DNA of 64,000 bases from Agrobacterium tumefaciens (lineage in GTDB: Bacteria; Pseudomonadota; Alphaproteobacteria; Rhizobiales; Rhizobiaceae), in NCBI RefSeq assembly GCF_005221325.1, contig NZ_CP039891.1:94105-158104 (forward strand), in the 5' to 3' direction. The notes beneath the pieces are model-generated. The model did not search any database, was not told the origin of the DNA, and saw only the letters and a list, made by a program, of their open reading frames with translations. Positions within the stretch are counted from its first letter, which is position 1; every line of letters starts with the position of its first letter. The translations under genes and the position numbers were made by a program. Positions 7,427-49,763 of the stretch are shown in pieces.

Positions 7427-7490
7427 AAGGGACCACCCATTCCGAAAGCCACTCTTCTGCTGCGCATAAAGCGCGCTCGCTGCTGCGGAA

Positions 7491-8183
7491 TCATAATGGT
7501 TGAGACCGAGTGGAGTACGATGCCAGCGCTCGCTGAAACGCGGGGCGAGCTTCACCGCGTTCGACGTAAAGTTGAACCATGGGGATCTCTCGTAGGACAT
7601 CCGTCCCACGTAGCGATCTAAGCACGGTCACCATCAGCAGGTCTCCGGCAGTAAAATCCCCGTCCAACCAGTCAGAGCCACCCAGCGTCTCAGCCAGTTC
7701 CTGAAGCCGCAGGGGAAGATAGCCAGCGCTACCTGACGAAATGCAGGGTTCAATTGTGTTCAAAGCCGCAAACATCCACATCACCGCCCGTGCCCTCGCA
7801 TTGCGGTCGGGTGGCAGCAGACCAGAATGCTCGTGCGCGATGTGATGGACGATCGCTCCTGATTCGAAGAGGGCTAGGTCGCCGTCCTCGTAAGTCGGCA
7901 TCTGTCCGAAAGGATGGAGTTCGCGGCGGTATTCAACCCTTTGCATTTCAGGAAACGTCAAAAACCGCAGATGATACGGTTGTCCAACTTCTTCCAATGC
8001 CCAGCGCACCCGAAAATCGCGGTGGTGCCCCCGGCCGCCATCGAAAGGGTTTTGGAACGTGGATACGATTGGTTGCCTTTTGGTGTGACTTTCCAGAACA
8101 TCGACATTTTTGACTTCGCTTGCTCGCTCGACGGATGGCCGCAGGGCAATGTTGCCCCACAGCGTTCTGAAGAGTGCCTTCAT
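7491..8183 (-). CDS. Glutathione S-transferase family protein
   Basis: A 230-residue cytosolic protein. The N-terminal thioredoxin-like domain has 'RVRWALEEVGQPYHLRFL', 'HPFGQMPTYEDGDLALFESGAIVHHIA' (the cis-Pro and ES glutathione-binding region) and then an all-helical C-terminal domain with 'GGSDWLDGDFTAGDLLMV', the N-capping box/Asp motif. The ATG at 8183 is preferred over the upstream ATG at 8201 because GGGAGG lies eight bases before it. The residues before the first helix are longer than in classic GSTs and no obvious catalytic Ser/Cys was identified. Likely a detoxification enzyme; substrate unknown. The TetR remnant downstream suggests former local regulation. Confidence 0.88.
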   Translation of the reverse strand: MKALFRTLWGNIALRPSVERASEVKNVDVLESHTKRQPIVSTFQNPFDGGRGHHRDFRVRWALEEVGQPYHLRFLTFPEMQRVEYRRELHPFGQMPTYEDGDLALFESGAIVHHIAHEHSGLLPPDRNARARAVMWMFAALNTIEPCISSGSAGYLPLRLQELAETLGGSDWLDGDFTAGDLLMVTVLRSLRGTDVLREIPMVQLYVERGEARPAFQRALASYSTRSQPL

Positions 8184-37910: not shown

Positions 37911-38393
37911 ATGGGTAAAGAACAAAAGTCTGTAGAGCAGTTGTTGAACGAATGCGCTGGCTTCGATCTGCGCAGGACAGCTCGGCGGGTTACAAACCTT
38001 TATGATCAAATTATTGAACCATCCGGGATTACGGCTGCGCAATGGCCCCTTCTAAGGGCCCTGGAGCACGGGACTTTATCAATGTCGAGACTGTCAACCG
38101 AACTGCAGGTCGATCGAACCAGCCTTCGCCGCATGCTTGATCCCTTAGAAAAGCACAACCTCGTTGCCGTGAGCCGAGATCCCCTCGATAAACGAAGCCG
38201 GCTCGTATCGCTGACCGAGCAAGGAGATCTGGCAAGGAAGAGCGCCCACACCCATTGGCGGCGGGCGCAGGAGACGCTTTTCCAAATCCTTGGCGAAGAC
38301 CAGTGGCGGGATCTGGTTTCTGTTCTGCGCAAAACTAATCGGGCGGTTCGTGAAGCGACCCGAGATGATCGCGACGAGACGCTTGGATCCTAG
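37911..38393 (+). CDS. MarR-family transcriptional regulator
   Basis: A 160-residue winged-helix protein. The N-terminal dimerisation helix is 'FDLRRTARRVTNLYDQIIEPSGIT'. The DNA-binding part is 'MSRLSTELQVDRTSLRRMLDPLEKHNLVAVSRDPLDKRSRLVSLTEQG'. MarR proteins of this type often respond to aromatic acids or acyl-CoA thioesters. Its stop overlaps the convergent acyl-CoA synthetase stop by three to four bases. It is the only regulator next to the PaaA-like oxygenase locus and is the likely sensor for it. Confidence 0.9.
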   Translation: MGKEQKSVEQLLNECAGFDLRRTARRVTNLYDQIIEPSGITAAQWPLLRALEHGTLSMSRLSTELQVDRTSLRRMLDPLEKHNLVAVSRDPLDKRSRLVSLTEQGDLARKSAHTHWRRAQETLFQILGEDQWRDLVSVLRKTNRAVREATRDDRDETLGS

Positions 38394-41143
38394 GCATTTG
38401 CTGCCAACCCCGGTTGATCAGCATCGGAGACGAACCGATCCACCAGGTTCGCTAACGCGAATTTTGTGACTTTACCCATCGGATTTTTTGGAAGTGAATC
38501 CACAAACACGACAAGCGTCGGGCACTTGTAGTGCGCGATTTTCGATCGGCAGCGCGCCATAACCTCGTGCTCTGTCAGCCGGAGGTCATCGGTTAGGACC
38601 ACTGCAGCCGTCACGCTCTCGCCCCATTTCGGGTCTGGTCTTCCAAATACCGCAGCTTCGCGTATTTCGGGGAAGGCGAGAAGAACGTTTTCAACCTCGG
38701 CGGCGTAAACGTTCTCGCCACCTGAAATGATCATTTCCTTGAGGCGACCTTTTACGTCAACGTTGCCGAAGGCATCGTAGACCCCGATGTCGCCGCCGTG
38801 AAACCATTCCTGCCGCAAAGCCGTCTCGGTCGCGGCTGGGTTTTCCCAGTAACCGCTAATAACCTGTGGCGACCGCACCACGATCTCGCCAGGCTCTCCC
38901 CTTGCTGCGATTGAGCCGTCCGCTGTTATGATGGCTACCTCTGCGCCGGCCGGCGCGCGACCGACGCAACTCGGCGCATGACCACCACCGGGTATGGCGC
39001 GATGGACAGCGATGCTACCGGTTTCCGTCATACCGAGTGTGTTTGTGACCTCTACCCAAGGAAGTAACGCGTGGATTCGTGCCAAGAGGACATCGGGTAG
39101 CGGTGCCGATGCTGAGCTCCAGTAGCGGAACTCGCGTAGCTGCTCCTTGATGCCACGCTTCTCAATTTGGTCAAGCATCTCGAAACCAATAGTCGGCGGT
39201 ACGAAGAGAGTGGCGACCTGATGTTTGATCGTTGCGTCCAATACGGCGTTTACGTTGAACTCGCTGTGAATTTTCGCCCAGCCTCCGCTGGTTAACGTAC
39301 CTATAATTGCTGGTTCGTGCCCCGTTATGTGAAACATCGGGGTTGTCACAAGCCGTGCTTTCTGGCGATGTGTTCGCAATTCTGACAACGTGCTCAGGAA
39401 CGAGAACCACATCACGTTCCTGTTGCTTCGGACCGCACCCTTTGGAAAGCCCGTTGTCCCCGCGGTGTAGAGGATCGACGCTGCCCGGTTCTCATCCGGA
39501 TTGATGGCAGGAAAGTTCTTTTCCACGACCAGGTGCGCGACTTCATGAGCAGAAAGACGATCGAACCCAGCGAACTGGACGTCAGACGGAACATCGTGGC
39601 GGATGGCGGGGACAAGTGCCGCCAAATCGTCGCTGTGCACTAGTAACTTGGAACCGCTGTTGCGAAGGACGTAGGCAATCTCAGGCGCCTTGAGCCGAAA
39701 GTTTACAGGGACAATGATCGCCCCAAGCGCGTTTGCGGCAAGGTAAAGATGGATAAATTCGAGACTGTTTCGGCCAATGATCGCGACCCGGTCACCCGCG
39801 CCGACACTGTATGTCTGCGAAAGAAGAGTGCTAAGGCCTCCCACGTGATCAACGATATCACCGTAGGTCGCCGTGCGCCCGTCCACGTCTATCGCGAGGT
39901 TTTTTCGGCGCCATCGCGCGCTTCGTCTGATCAGCGACAAGATATCGATAGCATTGAGGAGAGGCGCAGGGGTGGTCGCACTTGAAATGTGCCCATCTGC
40001 GTGCGGGCGATCATGTGCCACCAAATAGAAACCGTCCGACCTCAGGGAACACTGAAGTGGAACCTCCGACCAACCGGCTGGTTCACGTTCTTCGCCGGAA
40101 AAGGCCCGACGCACCGCACTGACTTGTGGCGAGCGGACAAGGAGGCGACCGGCCGAATTTTCATCCTGCAAAACGTCGCCAGCGGCGTGGACGGCGATAT
40201 CGACGCTTGGAAAGCCTTGCCATAACGACTGATCGAAATCGTATTCTGCGATGATGCCGTTCGCGGTGTCGCCAAGGACGAGATGCACGTCGGCACCCGC
40301 ACGCCTCAGTGAAAAACACTCTTGAAGTTGTTCGCTCGTCGGAAGGCTTGCCGTGTCGCTGAAGACGATGAGCCTCAGGCCGGCAAGCGAGCCGGACGCT
40401 TCGAGGATTGAGCGTGCGCGGGCAAGACTGTGAAGATCGACGACCCAAGTTTCGACGACCGAGCGAACCCGATTGGGAATAGGGCTTTCCGTATCAAGTT
40501 GCAGCACGTGAACGCCGCTCATAATGCTTGCAAACAAGAGCGACTCGAAGAGGAGATTTTCCACTCTGCCCAGCGCACCAATCGTATGTCCCCGGTCATT
40601 ATCAAGAGCAAAAGATGCAAACAGCCCCGTGTAGACCACGTTAAGGTGAGTTCGCCCTACGAGGCTCAACGGCCCCTCGTCGTCCGTCAACACCCATGAC
40701 ACGATTTCTCCCTCGCCGTCGCTGTGCCGCACAGCTGGACGGGTCCGCGCGACCGATCCAGCCGAACCCCTAAAAATCTCATCGACGGTTATCGAATGCT
40801 GATGCGAATATCGGTCCTCAGCGATCCAGAGATCCAACGCCGGATACTCTCCCCTGGGGTGACTTTGAATGAGAACAGGAGTGGCGCCTAACGCCAATAC
40901 CGCCCAAAAAAGCAAAGCACGCTCTGAAAAATCGCTAGTGGCGATTGCCACTTGCATTCCGGCTCTAATACCGGCCTCAAAAATGGCTCTTGACAATTCT
41001 TGCACGCGCGCCTCGGCCTCGGCGCCTGTGAAAGTTCCGCGCCTCCCCGTTAAAACCTGCAAGTCGTGGTTGGCGGTCGTCCCGCGTGAGAGGAAAGTTG
41101 CAACCTCGATACCGTCTACTTTTAGTGGCGCTGTGCGTGTCAT
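38390..41143 (-). CDS. Acyl-CoA synthetase with two tandem adenylation-type domains
   Basis: A 917-residue protein, about twice the usual acyl-CoA ligase core. Residues ~1-400 resemble a degenerate AMP-binding N-terminal domain (opens like 'EARVQELSRAIFEAGIRAGMQVAI') but lack the P-loop TSGTTGxPKG. Residues ~410-917 are a complete ligase: 'LYTAGTTGFPKGAV' at ~560, 'NTLGMTETGS', 'GGDIGVYDAFGNVDVKGRLKEMI', 'SGGENVYAAEVE' and the catalytic Lys in 'PKNPMGKVTKFAL' near 890. ATG 41143 has GAGG six bases upstream; an in-frame ATG at 41194 is weaker. It would convert an imported acid to its CoA thioester with ATP. It is divergent from the CoA-transferase-transporter-oxygenase operon. The role of the N-terminal pseudo-domain is unknown. 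Confidence 0.88.
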   Translation of the reverse strand: MTRTAPLKVDGIEVATFLSRGTTANHDLQVLTGRRGTFTGAEAEARVQELSRAIFEAGIRAGMQVAIATSDFSERALLFWAVLALGATPVLIQSHPRGEYPALDLWIAEDRYSHQHSITVDEIFRGSAGSVARTRPAVRHSDGEGEIVSWVLTDDEGPLSLVGRTHLNVVYTGLFASFALDNDRGHTIGALGRVENLLFESLLFASIMSGVHVLQLDTESPIPNRVRSVVETWVVDLHSLARARSILEASGSLAGLRLIVFSDTASLPTSEQLQECFSLRRAGADVHLVLGDTANGIIAEYDFDQSLWQGFPSVDIAVHAAGDVLQDENSAGRLLVRSPQVSAVRRAFSGEEREPAGWSEVPLQCSLRSDGFYLVAHDRPHADGHISSATTPAPLLNAIDILSLIRRSARWRRKNLAIDVDGRTATYGDIVDHVGGLSTLLSQTYSVGAGDRVAIIGRNSLEFIHLYLAANALGAIIVPVNFRLKAPEIAYVLRNSGSKLLVHSDDLAALVPAIRHDVPSDVQFAGFDRLSAHEVAHLVVEKNFPAINPDENRAASILYTAGTTGFPKGAVRSNRNVMWFSFLSTLSELRTHRQKARLVTTPMFHITGHEPAIIGTLTSGGWAKIHSEFNVNAVLDATIKHQVATLFVPPTIGFEMLDQIEKRGIKEQLREFRYWSSASAPLPDVLLARIHALLPWVEVTNTLGMTETGSIAVHRAIPGGGHAPSCVGRAPAGAEVAIITADGSIAARGEPGEIVVRSPQVISGYWENPAATETALRQEWFHGGDIGVYDAFGNVDVKGRLKEMIISGGENVYAAEVENVLLAFPEIREAAVFGRPDPKWGESVTAAVVLTDDLRLTEHEVMARCRSKIAHYKCPTLVVFVDSLPKNPMGKVTKFALANLVDRFVSDADQPGLAANA

Positions 41144-41265
41144 GGGTACCTCGTAAAAAATCGTCGTCTCTAAGCGAACGACAGATGTTGTCATTTTCTA
41201 ACGAGGTATAGGCACTCAGAAAGACACGATATTTCGGTAATCTGGAGCAAAAGGAAAAAATATGT

Positions 41266-41324: not shown

Positions 41325-42536
41325 ATGAAGTTATCAGGTGTGCGCGTGCTGGACCTTTCGCAGTTTATGGCGGGGCCATTGATTTCCGCCGTGATGCGCG
41401 ATCACGGAGCTGATGTCATCAAAATTGAATCTCGTACCGGTGACCCTACGCGGCACGCCGGCCGCGTTGGTGAGGAGGAAAGTACCTTTTTCGCCAGCCT
41501 TAATCGCGGCAAACGTTATGTCGCTGTGGATCTGAAAGCTCCTCAGTCGCGATCCGCACTGCAAAAACTAGTTCAGGCCGCTGACGTGCTCGTGGAATCT
41601 TTCGGACCGGGCACGAGTCGCCGCCTTGGCCTCGACTATAATACTGTGAAGGATTGGAACCCCGACCTCGTTTACTGTTCGGTCAGCGCTTTTGGTCAAA
41701 CTGGTCCCTTGCGCGAGGTCGGCTCGCACGACCAACTGGTGCAGGCGATTGCTGGCACATATGCGCGAGGCCATGACGGCAGTCCGATTGCGCCGACTGT
41801 CCCTATCGCCGGCGTTGTTGCCGCCTACTCGGCTCTTTCTGGGATTCTGATGGCGCTTCTGGCCGCACGCGAAGGGAGAGGAGGCGACCATCTTGATCTC
41901 TCAATGTTCGATGCGACACTAACTGCGCGCCCCACTGCCCTGTCACAAGCGCTGAGCACCCTCGATGCGCCGCAGGAATTTACTTTCAATGTCGGTATCG
42001 CTCTTCTATCGACTTACCGCACTGCGGACGCCAAATGGCTTTCTTTGGGTGCGCATGAACCTCGATATGCACGGGCATTGCTCCAGGCTCTGGAGCGCGA
42101 GGATCTAATCCCGCACGCGATAACGCCGGGGGCAGATCAATCCGCCGTAGCGAGCTTTTTAAGGCGCGCTTTTGCCTCGAGGACTTTGGACGAATGGCTC
42201 GAGTGGACAAAGGACAAGCGGCTGAGCCTCGGTCCCGTATTGAACTTCGCTGAAGCCTTGGCCCATCCACACACCGAGGCCCGCAGCATGCTTTTGCGAG
42301 ACCGGAACGGTCGGCCGCACCTTGGAACACCGCTCAAGTTTTCGGCCGATCCTGGCGAACCCGACCTACGCCTGGGGCGGGTCGGTGAAGATACCCTTGC
42401 CGTCCTCAAAGAGATTGGTATCGACGAAAACTCCCTGGATGAGCTGCTTCGGACTGAAGCGATTTTCGCCCCTGACGCTCCAGGTATCGGTGCTGGCTAT
42501 AAGACGATCCTGCAAGAGGCGCCAATCCATGGATGA
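41325..42536 (+). CDS. Class III CoA-transferase (CaiB/BaiF family)
   Basis: A 403-residue formyl-CoA-transferase-like protein. It begins 'LSGVRVLDLSQFMAGPLISAVMRDHGADVIKIE', a family signature. It continues 'SLNRGKRYVAVDLKAP' and 'DVLVESFGPGTSRRLGLDY', and has the catalytic Asp in 'DHLDLSMFDATL' near residue 190. It would move CoA from an acyl-CoA donor to a free acid. It is the first gene of a rightward operon; the next gene (binding protein) begins within about 30 bases of its stop. Together with the divergent ligase it gives two routes to charge the acid substrate. Confidence 0.92.
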   Translation: MKLSGVRVLDLSQFMAGPLISAVMRDHGADVIKIESRTGDPTRHAGRVGEEESTFFASLNRGKRYVAVDLKAPQSRSALQKLVQAADVLVESFGPGTSRRLGLDYNTVKDWNPDLVYCSVSAFGQTGPLREVGSHDQLVQAIAGTYARGHDGSPIAPTVPIAGVVAAYSALSGILMALLAAREGRGGDHLDLSMFDATLTARPTALSQALSTLDAPQEFTFNVGIALLSTYRTADAKWLSLGAHEPRYARALLQALEREDLIPHAITPGADQSAVASFLRRAFASRTLDEWLEWTKDKRLSLGPVLNFAEALAHPHTEARSMLLRDRNGRPHLGTPLKFSADPGEPDLRLGRVGEDTLAVLKEIGIDENSLDELLRTEAIFAPDAPGIGAGYKTILQEAPIHG

Positions 42537-42564
42537 ACAGCACTCTTCGAGCCAAAGGTGGACC

Positions 42565-43539
42565 ATGGCAGTACGATTTTTAACGCTTTCTTTGTTTTTC
42601 ACGTTGGCTTTCGCCGCGTTCGCAGGACCGGGCCAGGCGCAGGAGAAGACGAAATTCCGCTTCGGCGTTCTATACTCAAATCCCCTCGCAGCATTGATTG
42701 CCGTTGAGCGTGGCTATTTCAAAGAAGAGGGGATCGATGTCGAACTCGTCCCAGTCCAAAACGGCCCTGCAGCCATTGCCGCCGCGACCAGCGGCGCCGT
42801 GGATGTGACGTTCGGGGACATCCTGGCATGGTCCAGCGGTCTTTCAAACGGCTTCACCAATGTAAAACTTTTGCTGCCGGGTACGTACAACGGTAGTTCG
42901 GACCTGTTGGTTGGACCCAAGTCAAGTTTGCGCGTAGCTTCCGACTTTGTAGGCAAGCGCATCGGCGTTCCCCCTGCCCCGACTTTTGGTCTTTCCGTGC
43001 GCATATGGCTTGAGGCCGCCGGCGTAGACCCTTCGAGCGTCAAGCAGGTGATAATTCCTACAAACGGAGACGGCCAGGCGCTGGCCCGCGGCGATGTTGA
43101 TGCTGTACTGACGTTCGAACCGGCGTCGAGCCGTCTGGTGCTTGAACAAGGCGCCGTCTCTCTCGGCGATACAACGGAAAAGGCCGCTCCCGAAGGAGCA
43201 ACCTTCACCGCTTATTACGCCAATGAAAACTTCGCTAAAACCAATCCCGAACTGCTTGCTCGGATCGCCCGAGCTATCAATCGCGTGGTCGCTGATGAGA
43301 AGAATATAACGATCAAGGAACGGGCGTTGATCCTCGGTAAATATAGCGGAATAGACTTGGTCGAGCTGGACAAGGCCGTGCCCGGTCTCATCGATCGCAT
43401 CCGTTTCGGCAAATTTCAGACCAAACCCGTAAATATTGCCGCAACGCAGGCATGGCTCGATCGAGCTGCAAAATTCGGGGGCGTTCCTGCTTCCGTGGAC
43501 ATCACGCCGCATATTCTATCACCTGCTTTGGGGAAATAA
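42565..43539 (+). CDS. ABC transporter periplasmic substrate-binding protein, NitT/TauT type
   Basis: A 324-residue protein. ATG 42565 is chosen for its AAAGGTGG site and because it yields a clean signal peptide (MAVRFLTLSLFFTLAFAAF, cut after GQA). ATG 42529, overlapping the CoA-transferase stop, is the alternative. Body motifs are 'ERGYFKEEGIDVELVPVQNGPAAIAAATSG' and 'FVGKRIGVPPAPTFGLSV'. The family binds sulfonates, nitrate, aromatic acids and vitamin precursors. Here it probably binds the acid that the CoA ligase and oxygenase process. Confidence 0.9.
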   Translation: MAVRFLTLSLFFTLAFAAFAGPGQAQEKTKFRFGVLYSNPLAALIAVERGYFKEEGIDVELVPVQNGPAAIAAATSGAVDVTFGDILAWSSGLSNGFTNVKLLLPGTYNGSSDLLVGPKSSLRVASDFVGKRIGVPPAPTFGLSVRIWLEAAGVDPSSVKQVIIPTNGDGQALARGDVDAVLTFEPASSRLVLEQGAVSLGDTTEKAAPEGATFTAYYANENFAKTNPELLARIARAINRVVADEKNITIKERALILGKYSGIDLVELDKAVPGLIDRIRFGKFQTKPVNIAATQAWLDRAAKFGGVPASVDITPHILSPALGK

Positions 43540-43543
43540 GTTC

Positions 43544-44356
43544 GTGAGTACGCTTTCGACATCAAATAGTGGCGCGCGTCCGATCTCGCATGGCGCCCGG
43601 GTCGCGTTCTCCGACATCGCTAAAGGATACGGGAATGGGAACCGCCAGTCTTTGGCGCTTCAGGGGCTTAGTGGCACCGTTGCGGCAGGTTCCTTCGTGT
43701 CCGTCGTTGGGCGGTCTGGTAGCGGGAAGTCAACGCTGCTGCGCATTCTTGCAGGCCTCTTGCCTTCTGACGCAGGCCTGATCGAGATCGACAACAACGT
43801 GGTTGAAGGCCCGCCTTCGGGCGCCCGGTATGTCTTCCAAAATTACAGCGAATCTCTTTTTCCCTGGTGTTCTGTCGAAGCCAATATCCGCTTTGGTCTT
43901 AAGAACGGGTCTGCCACGCGAAATTCCAGCGATGCGGGTCCGCTTCACTATCTGAAGCTCGTCGGGTTGGAAGATGCTGCGGCCAAGTACCCGTGGCAGT
44001 TGTCAGGTGGCATGCAGCAGCGCGTTGCGATAGCCCGAGCGTTGGCGTCCTCGCCTCGTGTTCTGCTGATGGACGAGCCTTTCGGCGCGGTTGACGCTCT
44101 CAGTCGTTCCAAGCTGCAGGACATGCTGCTTAAACTTTGGGAAGAGCTTGGCCTGACTATTCTGCTTGTCACGCATGACATCGACGAGGCCCTCTACTTG
44201 TCAGACCGCATCCTTGTACTGAACCCGGACGGCGATGGTTTCGCTGCGGACGTTGAGGTTGCTCTGCCCCGCCCGCGCTCGCAGATCGAGACGCGCGAGC
44301 ACGAAGCTTTCAGCCATCAACGGCGGGAACTGTATCAGCTGATCCTTGGCCAGTAG
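43544..44356 (+). CDS. ABC transporter ATP-binding protein, NitT/TauT type
   Basis: A 270-residue ATPase with Walker A 'GRSGSGKSTLLRILAG', Q-loop 'FQNYSESLFPW', signature 'QLSGGMQQRVAIARAL', Walker B 'VLLMDEPFGAVDALSR' and H-loop 'LLVTHDIDEALYLSDR'. The GTG start at 43544 is four bases after the binding-protein stop with GGGAAATAAG before it. Closely similar to the ATPase at 21828-22604, including the unusual Q-loop. Confidence 0.92.
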   Translation: MSTLSTSNSGARPISHGARVAFSDIAKGYGNGNRQSLALQGLSGTVAAGSFVSVVGRSGSGKSTLLRILAGLLPSDAGLIEIDNNVVEGPPSGARYVFQNYSESLFPWCSVEANIRFGLKNGSATRNSSDAGPLHYLKLVGLEDAAAKYPWQLSGGMQQRVAIARALASSPRVLLMDEPFGAVDALSRSKLQDMLLKLWEELGLTILLVTHDIDEALYLSDRILVLNPDGDGFAADVEVALPRPRSQIETREHEAFSHQRRELYQLILGQ

Positions 44357-44374
44357 CTCACATTGGAACAACGC

Positions 44375-45223
44375 ATGACGATTTCAACCAATACATATGC
44401 TGTGCCCATCCCCAAGTCCAATACCGGTCGCGGCCCTTTCACAAAGGTGGCCTTTCGGCCTCCATTGCGCACATCCGGATGGATCGCAGTGATATTGTTG
44501 CTCGTGTCGTGGGAGCTCAGCGTTAGGCTCGGGTTTATCGCTCTCCCGAGCGTCCCCGCCCTTTCGAAAGTTGCGACGACCTGGTGGCTGGAAGCCAGTT
44601 CAGGACGCCTCATTAGTGAACTTGGCTCGACGCTTGGCCTGATGGCAGTTGGATATGGCCTTGCCGCAATAATCGGCATAGTTATCGGGTTGGCGATGGG
44701 GAGCAGTAAGGTCATCTGGGAGCTGCTGGAACCCTTTGTCGAGCTTTTGCGGCCACTGCCCATTTCAGCGCTTGTCCCGCTACTTATTCTCTTCCTCGGG
44801 ATCGACGCCGCTCTCAAGGTCACGGCAGTCACGCTCGGCGCGGTCTTCCCCATCCTTGTCAATACATATGCGGGTGTACGATCGGTGACCCCGACGCTTC
44901 GTGAAACAGCGAAGACATTCGAGCTGAGCCGATGGCGGACGCTGATCGCTGTCGTTTTTCCTCATGCCTCACCATACATCTTTGTCGGTCTTCGAACTTC
45001 GCTCGCCATTTCGCTCATCATCAGTGTTTTTGCGGAAATGATCGCGGGCAGCGCAGGGATGGGTTTCTTCATCCTCCAGGCGCAGCAGACATTGAGTGTA
45101 CAGAAGCTTTATGCCGGTGTTCTGACCCTGGCAGTCGTCGGATATGTGTTGAACGCACTCTTCCTGCGATTAGAAAATCTCGTTCTTCCATGGCGCGTGG
45201 ATGGACCACTTCGTCGAGCTTAG
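44375..45223 (+). CDS. ABC transporter permease, NitT/TauT type
   Basis: A 282-residue membrane protein. The cytoplasmic EAA-like loop reads 'TPTLRETAKTFELSRWRTLIAVVFPHASPYIFVGLRTSLAIS'-type sequence (conserved E and G positions), and 'GMGFFILQAQQTLSVQKLYAGV' near the end matches the paralogue at 20963. A TTG at 44363 is a possible earlier start; ATG 44375 follows GGAA. Completes the importer of this operon. Confidence 0.9.
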   Translation: MTISTNTYAVPIPKSNTGRGPFTKVAFRPPLRTSGWIAVILLLVSWELSVRLGFIALPSVPALSKVATTWWLEASSGRLISELGSTLGLMAVGYGLAAIIGIVIGLAMGSSKVIWELLEPFVELLRPLPISALVPLLILFLGIDAALKVTAVTLGAVFPILVNTYAGVRSVTPTLRETAKTFELSRWRTLIAVVFPHASPYIFVGLRTSLAISLIISVFAEMIAGSAGMGFFILQAQQTLSVQKLYAGVLTLAVVGYVLNALFLRLENLVLPWRVDGPLRRA

Positions 45224-45260: not shown

Positions 45261-46235
45261 ATGACCACCCTTGCTCCCCAAGCACCGGCAAAAACCGTGG
45301 GCCTCTCAAGCACCGAAGCGGAGGAGGTTGCGCTCCAAACACGCCTCAAGGCAGGTGGAAACGTCGAAACGATCGATGAGATGACTGACCGGTATCGGTT
45401 GGTTCTGAAAGCGACGATCTCCATTTCTGCCGATCTTGAGGTCATGACGCTACCCTTGCAGCACAATTCGTTTTTCAAGAGCAATTCGATCAACGAGCGC
45501 ATCGCTTTGGCTTCGGCATTGCAAGACGAGATGGGCCACGCCCAAATCATGTTTCGGCTGCTTGAGGATTTCGGAATAGACCCCTACGAGCAACTTTTCA
45601 TCAGGCGGCCTGAAGACTTCAAAACATTCTATAATCTTGAGTGGGAGCCTATTGACGCGATCTCCACGGCCGTGGGTCACATCATGGGTGACGCGGCGGG
45701 TTACATTACGACGATCGACCTAGAATCGAACTGTTCTTACGGCCCCTACAGCAGATCGCTTCGCAAAGTTAACTTCGAAGAGAACTTCCATGTGAAGCGC
45801 GGCGAGTACAGTATTCGACATTACATGGGGCTGGGTGAAGAGGTGCGTCAACGCGTTCAGGCTCAGATTGATCTGACGTTCCCACGCACGGCGGAATGGT
45901 TCGGCACGACCGACGACGTCAAGTCGCGTACAGACCAGTTGCACTATCGCGTCCGGGGACTGAGCAATGATCAACTGCGTCAGCAATGGCTGTCCAGGGT
46001 AGTGCCGTTTTGCGAGGAGGTCGGGCTGAAGGTCCCTGCCCATTTTGACGCGGAACTCGGGATTTACGTGTTGGATTACCAGCTTCCCATCCTGTTCAAC
46101 AATGAGGTCGGAAAATGGGACTTCCGCACAGTGACGTGGGAAGAGAAGAAGGCGCAGTGGAAGCGCGGCGGACCATTTAAGATCCCCGGACTGACACGCC
46201 TTCAGCAAGAGCTCTGGGGAGACGACCTTTGGTAA
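45261..46235 (+). CDS. PaaA-like catalytic subunit of an acyl-CoA diiron oxygenase
   Basis: A 324-residue ferritin-like protein homologous to PaaA, the diiron subunit of phenylacetyl-CoA 1,2-epoxidase. The match is seen block by block: iron-binding 'ALQDEMGHAQIMF' (PaaA has VQDEAGHGLY), 'SNCSYGPYSRSLRKVNFEENFHVKRGE' (PaaA has SYGPYARA...KEESFHQRQG), 'LSNDQLRQQWLSRVVPFCEEVGLKVP' and 'HFDAELGIY'. Both ExxH-type iron motifs are intact, so it is probably active on an aromatic or related acyl-CoA. AGGAG lies seven bases before ATG 45261. An N-terminal extension and the C-terminus differ from E. coli PaaA, marking a divergent branch. Neighbours supply PaaB-, PaaC- and PaaD-like partners but no PaaE. 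Confidence 0.9.
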   Translation: MTTLAPQAPAKTVGLSSTEAEEVALQTRLKAGGNVETIDEMTDRYRLVLKATISISADLEVMTLPLQHNSFFKSNSINERIALASALQDEMGHAQIMFRLLEDFGIDPYEQLFIRRPEDFKTFYNLEWEPIDAISTAVGHIMGDAAGYITTIDLESNCSYGPYSRSLRKVNFEENFHVKRGEYSIRHYMGLGEEVRQRVQAQIDLTFPRTAEWFGTTDDVKSRTDQLHYRVRGLSNDQLRQQWLSRVVPFCEEVGLKVPAHFDAELGIYVLDYQLPILFNNEVGKWDFRTVTWEEKKAQWKRGGPFKIPGLTRLQQELWGDDLW

Positions 46236-46543
46236 CGGAACTCCAGGTCAAGGCCGCACTGAGGGCCGTGCACGATCCCCACGTACCGGTTCCCATCGAG
46301 GAGATGGGCATGTTGCGCGGGATAGAGATTGCCGATGATGGGACCGTTATGGTCGAACTCGGCATCCCTTGTCTGGCTTGTCCAGGCGTCTCAATGCTGA
46401 AGAACGATATAGTTCAGGCCGTAAGCACGATTGCGGGTGTCACGGGCGTCATCGTTGACGAAGGCTGGCATCACCACTGGACGACGAGCATGATTGCGCC
46501 GGAAGCACGGGAATTCATGCGCAGAAATGGAATTCGAACATGA
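46229..46543 (+). CDS. PaaD N-terminal-half protein (DUF59/MIP18 iron-sulfur assembly domain)
   Basis: A 104-residue protein from a TTG at 46229 that overlaps the PaaA-like stop. It carries the MIP18/DUF59 fold: 'AVHDPHVPVPIEEMGMLRGIEIADDG', the conserved Cys in 'GIPCLACPGVSMLKNDIVQAV', and 'DEGWHHHWTTSMIAPEAREFMRRNGI', which aligns to '[22 protein letters not shown]' of E. coli PaaD. It stops exactly where PaaD would continue into its zinc ribbon; that part is encoded separately at 47567-47779. PaaD is thought to mature the Fe-S cluster of PaaE or the diiron site of the oxygenase. Confidence 0.88.
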   Translation: MVTELQVKAALRAVHDPHVPVPIEEMGMLRGIEIADDGTVMVELGIPCLACPGVSMLKNDIVQAVSTIAGVTGVIVDEGWHHHWTTSMIAPEAREFMRRNGIRT

Positions 46544-46806
46544 GCGAAAAGAGCGGTTTCAAGAAGATTGATACGGCCCTCGAAATCGGGCCTTCTGGGC
46601 CGACCCACTATGAAGTGTTTGCGCGTGCCGATGCAGGGGCCCAACTCGAGCATATCGGAAGTGTTGAGGCCCCGAATGTAAAGCTTGCGAAAGCGCGCGC
46701 TTGGTATCTTTTCGATCACATTTCCTGGCAGCAAATGATCATCGTTCCGTCAGTAGCGATCGTGCAGATTCATCCTGCCCGCAACCATCTCGAACCTGGA
46801 GCCTGA
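46540..46806 (+). CDS. PaaB-like small subunit of the oxygenase
   Basis: An 88-residue protein matching PaaB: 'THYEVFARADAGAQLEHIGSVEAPNVKLAKARAWYLF' corresponds to PaaB's 'LYEVFVRSKQGLSHRHVGSL-A-ALENARD' core. PaaB bridges PaaAC heterodimers in the epoxidase complex. Its ATG overlaps the stop of the preceding DUF59 gene (ATGA), showing translational coupling. Confidence 0.85.
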   Translation: MSEKSGFKKIDTALEIGPSGPTHYEVFARADAGAQLEHIGSVEAPNVKLAKARAWYLFDHISWQQMIIVPSVAIVQIHPARNHLEPGA

Positions 46807-46809
46807 ACG

Positions 46810-47580
46810 ATGTTGTCACAAAAAGCATTGGAGAAGCAGCTGTTCAGCGAGTTGCTCGCTATAGCAGATACCAAATTTGTACTTGGAAGCTGGTATTTCA
46901 TCGCTCTTCCGAACGGTCGGTCAGTGCAGGATTGGACCGCGCTTTGCGCACTAACGCAGGATCACTACGGCCACTCCCGCGCTCTTTACCGTTACTTTGC
47001 CCGGTACGGTTTCACGCGACCGGAAGCAGAGTGGCAGCGTGAAGCGGCCGACATCCGAAGCGCCCGCGTGCTCGATTATCCGCCTGAGTCCTGGGCTGAT
47101 CTCATCGTCACGGCGTATCTTGTGGAACTCGCCGTAACTTTGAGGCTAGGCTCATTTGCTGCGGCTGATGGTGACGGCGCGTTTGCGCGTCTGGCGCGCA
47201 AGATCCAAAACGAGTCGAGGTTCCACCTTGTGTATCTCGAAGGATGGCTGGACGTTTTGACGAACGGTATCGATGAGGATATTCACCGTTCGCTGCAAAA
47301 GCGCCTGAAGCTGTTTATCGAGTGGTGGGGCCCAGCGGATGTCGATGATGTGGTCCATTTGAGCGGCACCCGATCAATCGATGATACGGCACTGCTTGCC
47401 GAGTTCAGAGAACAAGTTAGCGCCGCCCTCCCGGCGTTCTCGTCGACTATCAATGAATTGACCGCTGGAAATCGTGGTGGCGCGGTCTCGGCTGAACTTC
47501 GTCGAAGTGGACGGCGGGGCATACCCGAGACGCTATATGAGCTCCTTCGCTTCAAGGAACCTGAACTTGCGGTCCCGTGA
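46810..47580 (+). CDS. PaaC-like structural subunit of the oxygenase
   Basis: A 256-residue ferritin-like helical protein homologous to PaaC, the non-catalytic partner of PaaA. 'KIQNESRFHLVYLEGWLDVLTNG' aligns with PaaC 'IKEARYHLRFSRGWLERLGNG'. 'QDHYGHSRALYRYF' sits where PaaC has 'GQARNFLSYA'. 'GRRGIPETLYELL' resembles the C-terminal GKKGLHTEHL motif. Four bases follow the PaaB-like stop. Unlike typical PaaC it retains an E/D-x-x-H-like element in 'TQDHYGH', so metal binding here cannot be dismissed. Confidence 0.85.
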   Translation: MLSQKALEKQLFSELLAIADTKFVLGSWYFIALPNGRSVQDWTALCALTQDHYGHSRALYRYFARYGFTRPEAEWQREAADIRSARVLDYPPESWADLIVTAYLVELAVTLRLGSFAAADGDGAFARLARKIQNESRFHLVYLEGWLDVLTNGIDEDIHRSLQKRLKLFIEWWGPADVDDVVHLSGTRSIDDTALLAEFREQVSAALPAFSSTINELTAGNRGGAVSAELRRSGRRGIPETLYELLRFKEPELAVP

Positions 47581-47779
47581 AACCTCTTCGAGCGTCACGA
47601 ATCCTCCTATCTCTGTTCGCTGCACCCATTGTGATGGAGACAACGTGCGCATGGAGTCGCTCTTCGGAGGGAGCGTTTCCGAGGTGCTGTATCGGTGCCT
47701 CGATTGTCGAAGCTTTTTTCATTGGGTGAAGTGGCGAGACGATCTTCGTCAAGAAGAGGAGAAGAGTTTTGGAAGATGA
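47567..47779 (+). CDS. PaaD C-terminal-half protein (zinc ribbon)
   Basis: A ~70-residue protein with four cysteines in two CxxC pairs: 'VRCTHCDGDNVRMESLFGGS' and 'VLYRCLDCRSFFHWVKW'. This aligns to the C-terminal domain of PaaD ('EVRCPRCASVHTTLISEFGS' ... 'ALYRCDSC'). The likely start is a TTG at 47567 with AAGGAA eight bases upstream, overlapping the PaaC-like stop; an ATG at 47537 is the alternative. It ends the oxygenase operon. In PaaD the zinc ribbon is fused to DUF59, so this is a gene split with the halves separated by two genes. Confidence 0.82.
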   Translation: MRSRETSSSVTNPPISVRCTHCDGDNVRMESLFGGSVSEVLYRCLDCRSFFHWVKWRDDLRQEEEKSFGR

Positions 47780-48341: not shown

Positions 48342-49196
48342 ATGACCATGAATTATTCCAATGCACCAACTCGATCTGTTGATGTCGGTGGGACGCCCTT
48401 CGTTTACCGCGAGATCGGAACCCCGGGCGGCGTCCCGATCGTTTTTTTGCATCACTTTACCGCCGTGCTGGAAGACTGGGACCCACGGGTTATCGACGGT
48501 CTGGCAAAAAATCATCATGTCGTCATCTTCAACAACCGGGGCGTGGGCGGTAGTGGCGGTGAAACGCCGACGTCCGTACAGGAAATGGCCAGGGACGCTG
48601 TCGCCTTCATCGGCGCGCTGGGACATAAGACGGTTGATCTTGTCGGGTTCTCGCTCGGCGGCTTCATCGCCCAGGTGATTGCCGTTGACAATCCGGGGCT
48701 GGTGCGCAAGCTAATCTTGGCAGGTACCGGTCCTGCCGGCGCAGACTTGGCCGATGCAGCAACGCCCAACCCTCCCCTGGATTTGGAAGGCGTAATCGCC
48801 AAAGCGCAGGCGGCGGGCAAGCATCCAAAGCATCTTCTGTTTTTCACGCAGACCGCTGCGGGGCAGATGGAGGCAAACGCTTTCCTCGCGCGCCTCGATG
48901 AACGCGAGGATGATCGCGACCACGCCGTGACTCCTGAAACCATACACGCTCAAACGGAAGCGATCGGCAAATGGAATCGGGAAGCGCCAGTCGGCCTCAC
49001 GGAGTTGAACATTCCCACGCTTATCGTCAACGGCGATCGAGATGTAATGGTGCCGACGGCACGTTCTCTCGAGCTTCTCCGGCTCATTCCTGATTCACGC
49101 TTAAGCATTTATCCCGATGCTGGACACGGCGGCCTGTTCCAATTTCACGCGCTCTTCGTCGAGCAGGCTCACGGATTCCTGACCGAACCAGCCTAA
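48342..49196 (+). CDS. Alpha/beta hydrolase
   Basis: A 284-residue alpha/beta-fold hydrolase. Oxyanion region 'IVFLHHFTAVLEDW', nucleophile Ser in 'VGFSLGGFIAQ' near 105, acid in 'VNGDRDVMVPT', and His in 'PDAGHGGLFQF'. AAGGAG precedes the ATG at 48342. It points the same way as the oxygenase operon but is separated by 560 bases and probably has its own promoter. It could hydrolyse an ester, lactone or ring-cleavage product; substrate unknown. Confidence 0.88.
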   Translation: MTMNYSNAPTRSVDVGGTPFVYREIGTPGGVPIVFLHHFTAVLEDWDPRVIDGLAKNHHVVIFNNRGVGGSGGETPTSVQEMARDAVAFIGALGHKTVDLVGFSLGGFIAQVIAVDNPGLVRKLILAGTGPAGADLADAATPNPPLDLEGVIAKAQAAGKHPKHLLFFTQTAAGQMEANAFLARLDEREDDRDHAVTPETIHAQTEAIGKWNREAPVGLTELNIPTLIVNGDRDVMVPTARSLELLRLIPDSRLSIYPDAGHGGLFQFHALFVEQAHGFLTEPA

Positions 49197-49319: not shown

Positions 49320-49763
49320 ATGAACGAGGGACTAGCGGATTTGAGCGGACTTGATCAGGTAAGGGAACTTCTCGCTAAGGGTTTACAACCTCCCTTCGGG
49401 GAGAAACTGGCCATATCACTCATCGAAGCTGATTACGGCCACGCTGTATTCGAGGGTATGCCCGACGCCAGCGCTTATAATCCGATGGGTACTGTACACG
49501 GTGGCTACATCGCGACAATGCTGGACAGTGCGTGCGCCGTCGCCACGCATACTGGTCTGAAGCCAGGCTTCGCGTATACAACCCTCGAACTGAAAGTCTC
49601 CTTTCTCAGGCCCCTTACCGAGCGAAGTGGTGTCGTGCGTGCGGTCGGGCGGCTCGTCTCTATCGGAGGTCGTGCGGCGTTTGCAGAAGCGACGGTTCAC
49701 GACGGCGATGGCCGGTTATCGGCTACCGCGACGTCTACGCTCTTGATCTTCCAGCCCCGCTAA
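49320..49763 (+). CDS. PaaI-like hotdog-fold acyl-CoA thioesterase
   Basis: A 147-residue hotdog thioesterase. The active-site strand-helix reads 'YNPMGTVHGGYIATMLDSACAVA', with conserved Asn, HGG and the Asp/Ser of the central helix, as in PaaI and 4-hydroxybenzoyl-CoA thioesterases. 'TTLELKVSFLRPL' matches the second strand motif. PaaI removes CoA from dead-end intermediates in phenylacetate catabolism, so its place 1.5 kb downstream of the PaaA-like oxygenase suggests a housekeeping role for the same pathway. AGGAAA precedes the start. Confidence 0.88.
   Translation: MNEGLADLSGLDQVRELLAKGLQPPFGEKLAISLIEADYGHAVFEGMPDASAYNPMGTVHGGYIATMLDSACAVATHTGLKPGFAYTTLELKVSFLRPLTERSGVVRAVGRLVSIGGRAAFAEATVHDGDGRLSATATSTLLIFQPR

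What the first reader, a model, noticed from the sequence alone, without database searches (positions are those of the whole stretch)
45261..47779. PaaABC-like acyl-CoA diiron oxygenase with PaaD split into two genes and no PaaE
Five overlapping or tightly spaced genes encode PaaA-like, PaaD N-terminal half, PaaB-like, PaaC-like and PaaD C-terminal half, in that order. Known phenylacetyl-CoA epoxidase operons run A-B-C-D-E with one fused PaaD and a PaaE reductase. Here the DUF59 part ends in the PaaD 'WTT..MxPxAR' motif and the zinc ribbon with two CxxC pairs is encoded after PaaC. Iron-binding motifs of PaaA are intact. The split, the reordering and the absent reductase suggest a distinct branch of the multicomponent oxygenases, likely using a borrowed ferredoxin or flavodoxin reductase and acting on a different acyl-CoA.
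Basis: partly seen in the sequence, partly recalled or inferred. Interest (0 to 1): 0.88.

Follow-up and report, generated by a model that had tools for sequence, protein, structure and literature searches.

The report
Reductase-less PaaABC oxygenase, two-gene PaaD
A plasmid of a soil bacterium carries an uncharacterised relative of the iron enzyme that starts phenylacetate breakdown; its helper protein is made as two separate pieces and no electron-supplying partner is encoded with it, an arrangement shared by distantly related bacteria and archaea that may show what the helper really does.

Summary
Observation confirmed. On an Agrobacterium conjugative plasmid five tightly packed genes encode PaaA-, DUF59 (D1)-, PaaB-, PaaC- and PaaD-zinc-ribbon (D2)-like proteins, without PaaE. 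It is neither a sequencing error nor a lone oddity: of 54 related loci (Pseudomonadota, Actinomycetota, Bacillota, Thermus, haloarchaea) 25 show A-D1-B-C-D2, 25 A-D1-B-D2-C, three are cut by contig ends and one has D1 elsewhere; D1 and D2 are never in one ORF (0 of 52), and a PaaE-like query found none closer than 9.4 kb. In 12 of 12 ordinary paa loci both halves are fused and PaaE follows in 11. A lies outside ordinary PaaA (100/100). 'Split' is probably backwards: two-gene PaaD looks ancestral by a one-step margin. Part was already catalogued: haloarchaeal operons have adjacent D1-D2, with D2 named 'PaaE'. New: D1 of this clade has DPH...PCxxCP where canonical PaaD has DPE...TYxGCP (55 of 57 against 0 of 33 rows). 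D1 and D2 persist without PaaE, so PaaD most likely serves PaaABC. Probable function: diiron monooxygenase on an imported, CoA-activated acid, with a shared ferredoxin. Substrate and donor are unproven.

The parts
45261..46235 (+). A: PaaA-like diiron oxygenase subunit (324 aa); columns of the diiron ligands hold E60, E90, H93, D144, E174, H177
46229..46543 (+). D1: DUF59 half of PaaD (104 aa), TTG start, with DPH (16-18) and PCLACP (47-52) in place of the canonical DPE and TYxGCP
   Evidence: PF01883 54.5 bits; TIGR02159 positions 1-88; signature counts
46540..46806 (+). B: PaaB-like bridging subunit (88 aa)
   Evidence: PF06243 26.6 bits, just under cut-off 27; TIGR02157 24.5 bits; found in all 54 loci
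46810..47580 (+). C: PaaC-like subunit (256 aa) with a degenerate diiron site, probably non-catalytic
   Evidence: PF05138 74.6 bits; ligand columns; alignment
47567..47779 (+). D2: PaaD zinc-ribbon half (70 aa from TTG 47567; 80 aa from ATG 47537), CTHC...CLDC; no gene listed here in the PLSDB tables
   Evidence: PF23451 40.7 bits; TIGR02159 positions 96-144; found in 52 of 54 loci, the other two cut by contig ends
41325..42536 (+). CaiB-type CoA transferase, first gene of the presumed operon
   Evidence: PLSDB gene table, NCBIfam
42529..43539 (+). ABC transporter substrate-binding protein, SsuA/TauA type
43544..44356 (+). ABC transporter ATPase
44375..45223 (+). ABC transporter permease; ends 37 nt before A
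38390..41194 (-). divergent AMP-binding acyl-CoA ligase; ligase domain in the C-terminal half, a second AMP-binding stretch that looks degenerate before it (gene table starts it at 41143)
   Evidence: PF00501 two stretches; generic ligase matches from residue 401 on
49320..49763 (+). PaaI-family hotdog thioesterase, also present in pAtCG920; possible product release, not shown to be in the operon

Best explanation
The five genes encode a diiron acyl-CoA monooxygenase of the PaaABC kind, in a clade of its own. A carries the working diiron site, B bridges, and C is a partner subunit whose own site has decayed. D1 (DUF59) and D2 (zinc ribbon) together do what one fused PaaD does elsewhere: most likely they help load or repair the iron of PaaABC. 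Because D1 and D2 persist where no PaaE is found, their client is PaaABC and not PaaE. An acid is imported by the ABC transporter, turned into a CoA thioester by the divergent ligase or the CaiB transferase, hydroxylated or epoxidised by the oxygenase, and released or passed on by CoA enzymes. Electrons come from a shared [2Fe-2S] ferredoxin and its reductase encoded elsewhere. Shown by computation: gene content, order, phylogeny, ligand-column conservation, fold of A, no PaaE found. Inferred: iron loading, substrate class, electron route.
Against: No biochemical or growth evidence. In Agrobacterium no ferredoxin gene is near, and in 43 of 54 loci none was found nearby. The reductase search could not see everything: 23 of the 53 loci other than the window have a flank under 9 kb upstream or 8 kb downstream. 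The ligase matches are generic, so the substrate cannot be named. PaaZ and PaaG models are not above cut-off in the genome (the second model reaches its cut-off in none of the 14 control genomes either), so if an epoxide is made its fate is unclear. D2 shows weak constraint outside its core. SufT of M. tuberculosis did not bind Fe or Fe-S (PMC9045647, passages), and a 2026 survey says PaaD and PaaE are non-essential in certain conditions and strains (PMC13186573, passages).
Confidence: 0.62

Rival explanations
1. Two independent splits: the common ancestor had a fused PaaD, which broke once in this clade and once in the haloarchaeal ordinary-type operons.
For: The two arrangements differ (D1-B-C-D2 here, adjacent D1-D2 in haloarchaea). 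Parsimony favours one fusion over two splits by a single step only.
Against: A single change (fusion in bacterial PaaD) suffices on the tree; D1 and D2 share an ORF in 0 of 52 loci of this clade.
Confidence: 0.28
2. An ordinary PaaABCDE operon that lost PaaE and broke PaaD recently, perhaps a decaying remnant.
For: The genome has no PaaE, PaaG or PaaZ match above cut-off; ordinary clusters without paaE are known (PMC2653477, passages).
Against: A lies outside the canonical clade (100/100); dN/dS of A, D1, B, C is 0.06-0.25; the same block is kept across phyla.
Confidence: 0.03
3. D1 itself binds a metal or Fe-S cluster through H18, C48 and C51 and, alone or with D2 (a rubredoxin-like four-Cys ribbon), hands electrons to the diiron site in place of PaaE.
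For: H18, C48 and C51 occur together in 55 of 57 rows and in none of 33 canonical rows; 53 of 53 database homologues (one of them the window's own) have DPH and PCxxCP; SufT proteins have one strictly conserved Cys (PMC4982691 and PMC9045647, passages).
Against: Thermus (L006) and Natrarchaeobius (L056), also without PaaE found, keep DPE and lack the CxxC; haloarchaeal ordinary-type operons also keep DPE/TYxGC, and no reductase is annotated beside the one inspected in annotation with its 'paaE'; zinc ribbons seldom carry iron (general knowledge).
Confidence: 0.08
4. The complex is not a ring or chain monooxygenase but another diiron activity on a CoA ester or amine.
Confidence: 0.08

Closest known systems
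Phenylacetyl-CoA epoxidase PaaABCDE (bacterial)
   Same: A, B, C and both PaaD domains are homologous; same fold and diiron ligand columns in A
   Different: A 22% identical to solved PaaA; PaaD in two genes placed around B-C; no PaaE found; D1 motif changed; no PaaG or PaaZ match above cut-off in the genome
Haloarchaeal PaaABC with NF041868 (PaaD) and NF041869 ('PaaE', homologous to the PaaD zinc ribbon)
   Same: DUF59 and zinc ribbon in separate genes, no reductase in the operon of L116
   Different: Order A-B-C-D1-D2; A groups with ordinary PaaA; D1 keeps DPE and TYxGC; C keeps the ligand residues in all columns checked
Second haloarchaeal and Thermus A-D1-B-C-D2 operons (annotated as 'phenylacetic acid catabolic protein' or paaA/paaC)
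   Same: Same clade and same gene order
   Different: A 36-48% identical to the window's; L005, L117 and L122 have a plant-type [2Fe-2S] ferredoxin gene nearby, L004 has none found; Thermus D1 keeps DPE
Benzoyl-CoA epoxidase BoxAB
   Different: BoxB chains of about 470 residues against 324; partners not compared
SufT / MIP18 DUF59 proteins
   Same: D1 aligns without gaps to TM0487 (1uwd)
   Different: DPE...T..C motif changed to DPH...PCxxC

Membership tests
Phenylacetyl-CoA epoxidase PaaABCDE | PaaA above the NCBIfam equivalog cut-off (280 bits) | tested here: not met
   114.8 bits
Phenylacetyl-CoA epoxidase PaaABCDE | PaaB and PaaC above their equivalog cut-offs | tested here: not met
   24.5 of 85.45 and 46.7 of 133.35 bits
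Phenylacetyl-CoA epoxidase PaaABCDE | PaaD as one DUF59 plus zinc-ribbon protein | tested here: not met
   two genes here; one ORF in 12 of 12 control loci
Phenylacetyl-CoA epoxidase PaaABCDE | PaaE reductase in the operon | tested here: not met
   no PaaE-family match on the plasmid contig, none above cut-off in the genome; a real PaaE scores 434.3 against 420.8
Phenylacetyl-CoA epoxidase PaaABCDE | A branches inside PaaA | tested here: not met
   canonical PaaA is one side of a 100/100 branch without the window's A (with haloarchaeal rows)
Phenylacetyl-CoA epoxidase PaaABCDE | activity on phenylacetyl-CoA | not testable with these tools
   needs biochemistry
PaaA_PaaC diiron family (PF05138) | score above gathering threshold | tested here: met
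   A 133.8 and C 74.6 bits against 28.5
PaaABC-type multicomponent oxygenase | PaaA-like fold and diiron ligand residues in the catalytic subunit | tested here: met
PaaD zinc ribbon (PF23451) | score above gathering threshold | tested here: met
   40.7 bits against 27
DUF59 / MIP18 (PF01883) | score above gathering threshold | tested here: met
   54.5 bits against 23.5
DUF59 / MIP18 (PF01883) | DPE-X26-31-T-X2/3-C motif (as given in PMC9045647, passages) | tested here: not met
   D16-P17-H18 ... P47-C48-L49-A50-C51
Haloarchaeal PaaD and 'PaaE' models NF041868 / NF041869 | scores above cut-offs 180 and 100 | tested here: not met
   D1 59 bits, D2 16.1 bits
Benzoyl-CoA epoxidase BoxB | family membership beyond fold | not tested

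The most novel reading that the evidence does not exclude
A cross-domain clade of PaaABC oxygenases for which I found no name keeps the ancestral two-gene PaaD, and its DUF59 half has turned the DPE/T/C pocket into a His-Cys-Cys metal site, so that D1 with D2 forms a dedicated metal-handling pair (iron loader, possibly also the electron entry point) that makes PaaE unnecessary.
Probability: 0.15. Interest if true: 0.8.

Novelty: new variant of a known kind. Interest (0 to 1): 0.55.

Why it matters
What PaaD does is unsettled: a 2015 review says it is indispensable in vivo but not required in vitro and may insert iron into PaaE or PaaA (PMC4498308, section 14). Here is a natural experiment: both PaaD domains are kept with PaaABC in all 51 loci not cut by a contig end (in one of them D1 lies about 2 kb away) while no PaaE is found beside them, which points to PaaABC as the client. 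Separate D1 and D2 proteins can be purified, deleted and swapped one at a time, which a fused PaaD does not allow. The clade-specific His/Cys/Cys set gives a precise mutational test. It also offers an explanation for 'incomplete' archaeal paa configurations (PMC13186573, abstract and passages) and shows that the NCBIfam model NF041869 'PaaE' matches a zinc ribbon, not a reductase. Genes annotated as PaaA without a PaaE may in part be these enzymes and not markers of phenylacetate degradation.

Tried and rejected
A-D1 fusion: P0081 (422 aa) looked like a natural A-D1 fusion. It comes from one contig of 2085 bases, the A end (WGCPVVM for the usual WGxxLW; by eye) suggests a frameshift at the overlap, and a targeted search found no second case (1 of 215 candidates, itself). 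Not used as evidence.

PaaE search with the longest ORF of L077 was void because that ORF is on the wrong strand; repeated with the right ORF.

D2 as chance ORF: dN/dS of its non-overlapping part (0.74) is close to that of one shifted frame (0.85; the other 1.95); the case rests on the conserved core and on 52 of 54 loci. One D2 row (L033) in the alignment was cut at the wrong domain; the scan gives it E 9e-29, but that model was built from these same loci, so the independent test is the single-sequence search.

Substrate from ligase family: generic acyl-CoA ligase matches only. Downstream alpha/beta hydrolase (48342-49196): not listed in pAtCG920, so not counted as a part. Promoter scan: 2 sites against 3.6 expected in shuffles. 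Structure of C: the job failed on the machine and was not repeated, so the fold of C was not tested. Docking of D1 with D2 cannot be run with these tools. Windows of reduced view: gene clusters were named from one scanned representative each.

Searches in print for this arrangement; none of the listings showed it, but four of them were capped (19: 20 of 124 listed; 28: 20 of 22; 87: 15 of 36; 112: 15 of 24) and the library holds only open-licence PMC papers. One search looked for DUF59 site papers.
Full report
1. Where it is. The window is bases 94105-158104 of contig C4 of its genome. Its coordinates coincide with conjugative plasmid pAtCFBP5877b of Agrobacterium tumefaciens CFBP5877 (NZ_CP039900.1, 158,104 bases; A at 139365-140336 in both). 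The block is also 100% identical on NZ_CP116691.1 and 93.6% identical on pAtCG920. Upstream on the same strand lie a CaiB CoA transferase and an SsuA/TauA-type ABC transporter, whose permease ends 37 nt before A; a divergent AMP-binding ligase, MarR and LysR genes lie further upstream. A PaaI-type thioesterase follows on both plasmids whose tables I read.

2. The five genes. A (324 aa), D1 (104 aa), B (88 aa), C (256 aa) and D2 (70 or 80 aa) are packed with overlaps or gaps of a few bases. D1 matches the first 88 and D2 positions 95-144 of the 146-position PaaD model, and D2 passes the PaaD zinc-ribbon model. The gene tables of two plasmids list nothing at D2; these PLSDB tables are incomplete by the tool's own account. 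No protein reaches the equivalog cut-off of PaaA, PaaB, PaaC or PaaD.

3. Not an oddity. A profile-driven scan of one genome per species gave 49 loci (85 stretches matched a pattern, 50 were confirmed); with four plasmid loci (L004-L007) and the window there are 54 (L003 is the window's own plasmid and was left out). Searched with the window's single sequences, D1 and B came up in all 54 and D2 in 52 (weakest D2 E 0.0017). With family models built from those hits the orders are: A-D1-B-C-D2 in 25, A-D1-B-D2-C in 25, cut by the contig end in 3 (L018, L039, L048), D1 elsewhere in 1 (L056). D1 and D2 lie in one ORF in 0 of 52. Hosts include Bradyrhizobium, Pseudomonas, Burkholderiales, marine alpha- and gammaproteobacteria, Amycolatopsis, Mycobacterium, Sulfobacillus, Thermus and haloarchaea. 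Three further loci (L103, L117, L122) show A-D1-B-C-D2 too. The close type is rare: in 398 sampled genomes of the phylum 2, the window's own included, score about 512 bits, and the best matches of the other 68 genomes with a match are at most 161.5 bits (at most five candidates scored per genome); in the genus 5 of 39 genomes match, four of them at 29-31% identity only.

4. Controls. In 12 ordinary paa loci from the same order (L092-L102, L104; L103 is of the window's kind and was left out) the same D1 and D2 models hit one ORF after C in 12 of 12, and a PaaE-like reductase follows in 11 of 12; the twelfth (L098) is cut by its contig end. The same reductase query (a chromosomal reductase of the window's genome) found no PaaE-like reductase closer than 9.4 kb in the 54 loci; the one at 9.4 kb is in Mycobacterium L028, and weak hits in L005 and L056 are stand-alone ferredoxins. 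Limits: 23 of 53 loci have less than 9 kb upstream or 8 kb downstream, and six have under 1 kb downstream.

5. Electron donor. Nine gammaproteobacterial loci have an adrenodoxin-type [2Fe-2S] ferredoxin gene convergent just downstream of the block, and two haloarchaeal ones a plant-type ferredoxin upstream; two more haloarchaeal loci have such a gene annotated. Agrobacterium has none near: its nine Fer2 matches are on contigs C1 and C3, not C4. Its best PaaE-like protein is on C1 at 174 bits against a cut-off of 420.8.

6. Phylogeny. With 75 rows (69 chosen from 135 collected, plus six database proteins) canonical PaaA is one 100/100 group and the window's A sits in a 29-row 100/100 group outside it. 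With 49 rows including haloarchaeal ordinary-type operons and PaaC as outgroup, the A-D1-B-C-D2 clade (20 rows) has 97/85, and ordinary bacterial (9) plus haloarchaeal (3) PaaA form the other, 100/100. Holding all two-gene A rows together is rejected (p-AU 0.00045). As the haloarchaeal ordinary-type operons also have two PaaD ORFs (3 of 3; annotated in L116), one fusion in bacteria explains the pattern with one change, an ancestral fusion needs two. This is a one-step margin; it rests on few rows and long branches, and the tested group was chosen after the tree was seen.

7. Prior art. NCBIfam NF041868 (PaaD, DUF59 only) and NF041869 ('PaaE', 56 positions) describe the haloarchaeal pair; the second matches the zinc ribbon of canonical PaaD and of six D2 proteins tested, so its name is misleading. 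A 2026 survey calls archaeal configurations incomplete (PMC13186573, abstract and passages); the two-gene PaaD offers an explanation. A 2009 survey found paaA-D in all 25 clusters, paaE in 19 (PMC2653477, passages). Eight literature searches, four with capped lists, did not show this clade described.

8. A signature in D1. DUF59 proteins share DPE-X26-31-T-X2/3-C with a reactive Cys (PMC9045647, passages). In 55 of 57 rows of the window's clade the motif is DPH ... P-C-x-x-C; the exceptions are Thermus (L006) and Natrarchaeobius (L056). All 33 canonical rows (30 bacterial, in which some genomes occur twice, and 3 haloarchaeal) have DPE and T-Y-x-G-C. All 53 database homologues of D1, the window's own among them, have both changes and are 92-130 aa long, while a fused PaaD of 165-180 aa would have been within the search's length range. 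Aligned to TM0487, H18 and C48 fall on E22 and T52 and C51 on C55. That TM0487 residues D20, E22, T51, T52 and C55 cluster is my recollection; PMC9045647 says that D, E and T side chains form a pocket of about 5 A in three DUF59 structures, TM0487 among them, but 12-17 A in M. tuberculosis SufT (passages). Metal binding is inference.

10. Function. Neighbours are CoA-ester enzymes: clusters whose scanned representative is an AMP-forming ligase in 34 of 54 loci (31 plus the window, pAtCG920 and Pseudomonas), CaiB in 15, MaoC in 23, enoyl-CoA hydratase in 17, anywhere in the held flanks of up to 10 kb (64 kb for the window). In Bradyrhizobium ligase, thiolase and FadB-like genes follow. The Pseudomonas relative shares MarR, ligase, CaiB and ABC transporter genes with Agrobacterium upstream of A and has an OprD porin downstream. 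I therefore read it as a monooxygenase on an imported, CoA-activated acid, most likely aromatic or alicyclic; the acid is not identified.

11. Verdict. It is a new variant of a known kind, already half-recorded in databases under misleading names.

Noticed in passing
L116 (Haloferax lucentense plasmid) 7478-7645 and NCBIfam NF041869: The gene annotated paaE there is a 55-aa zinc ribbon homologous to the C-terminal part of PaaD, not a reductase.
   Followed up: yes
L116, L118, L121 (haloarchaeal ordinary-type paaC): These PaaC proteins keep the ligand residues in all seven columns checked (3 of 3), unlike bacterial PaaC, so both subunits may be catalytic there.
   Followed up: partly
window 38390-41194 (-): The acyl-CoA ligase carries about 400 extra N-terminal residues that look like a degenerate second AMP-binding domain.
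   Followed up: no
L006 7438-7617 (Thermus plasmid): An extra 60-aa ORF that looks by eye like a second PaaB sits between B and C.
   Followed up: no
L100 2963-3745, L101 2568-3413, L104 2134-2901: A third PaaA/PaaC-like gene (about 260-280 aa) lies just beyond PaaE in three ordinary paa operons and forms its own 100/100 clade.
   Followed up: partly
L019 7847-8605 and the same place in L020, L021: A nitroreductase-family gene starts 18-19 nt after D2 in three marine alphaproteobacterial loci; a possible electron supplier.
   Followed up: no
L028 573-1901 (Mycobacterium sp. SM1): A reductase-like ORF with a plant-type ferredoxin motif lies 9.4 kb upstream of A, the only PaaE-like reductase that the query found near any of the 54 loci.
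   Followed up: no
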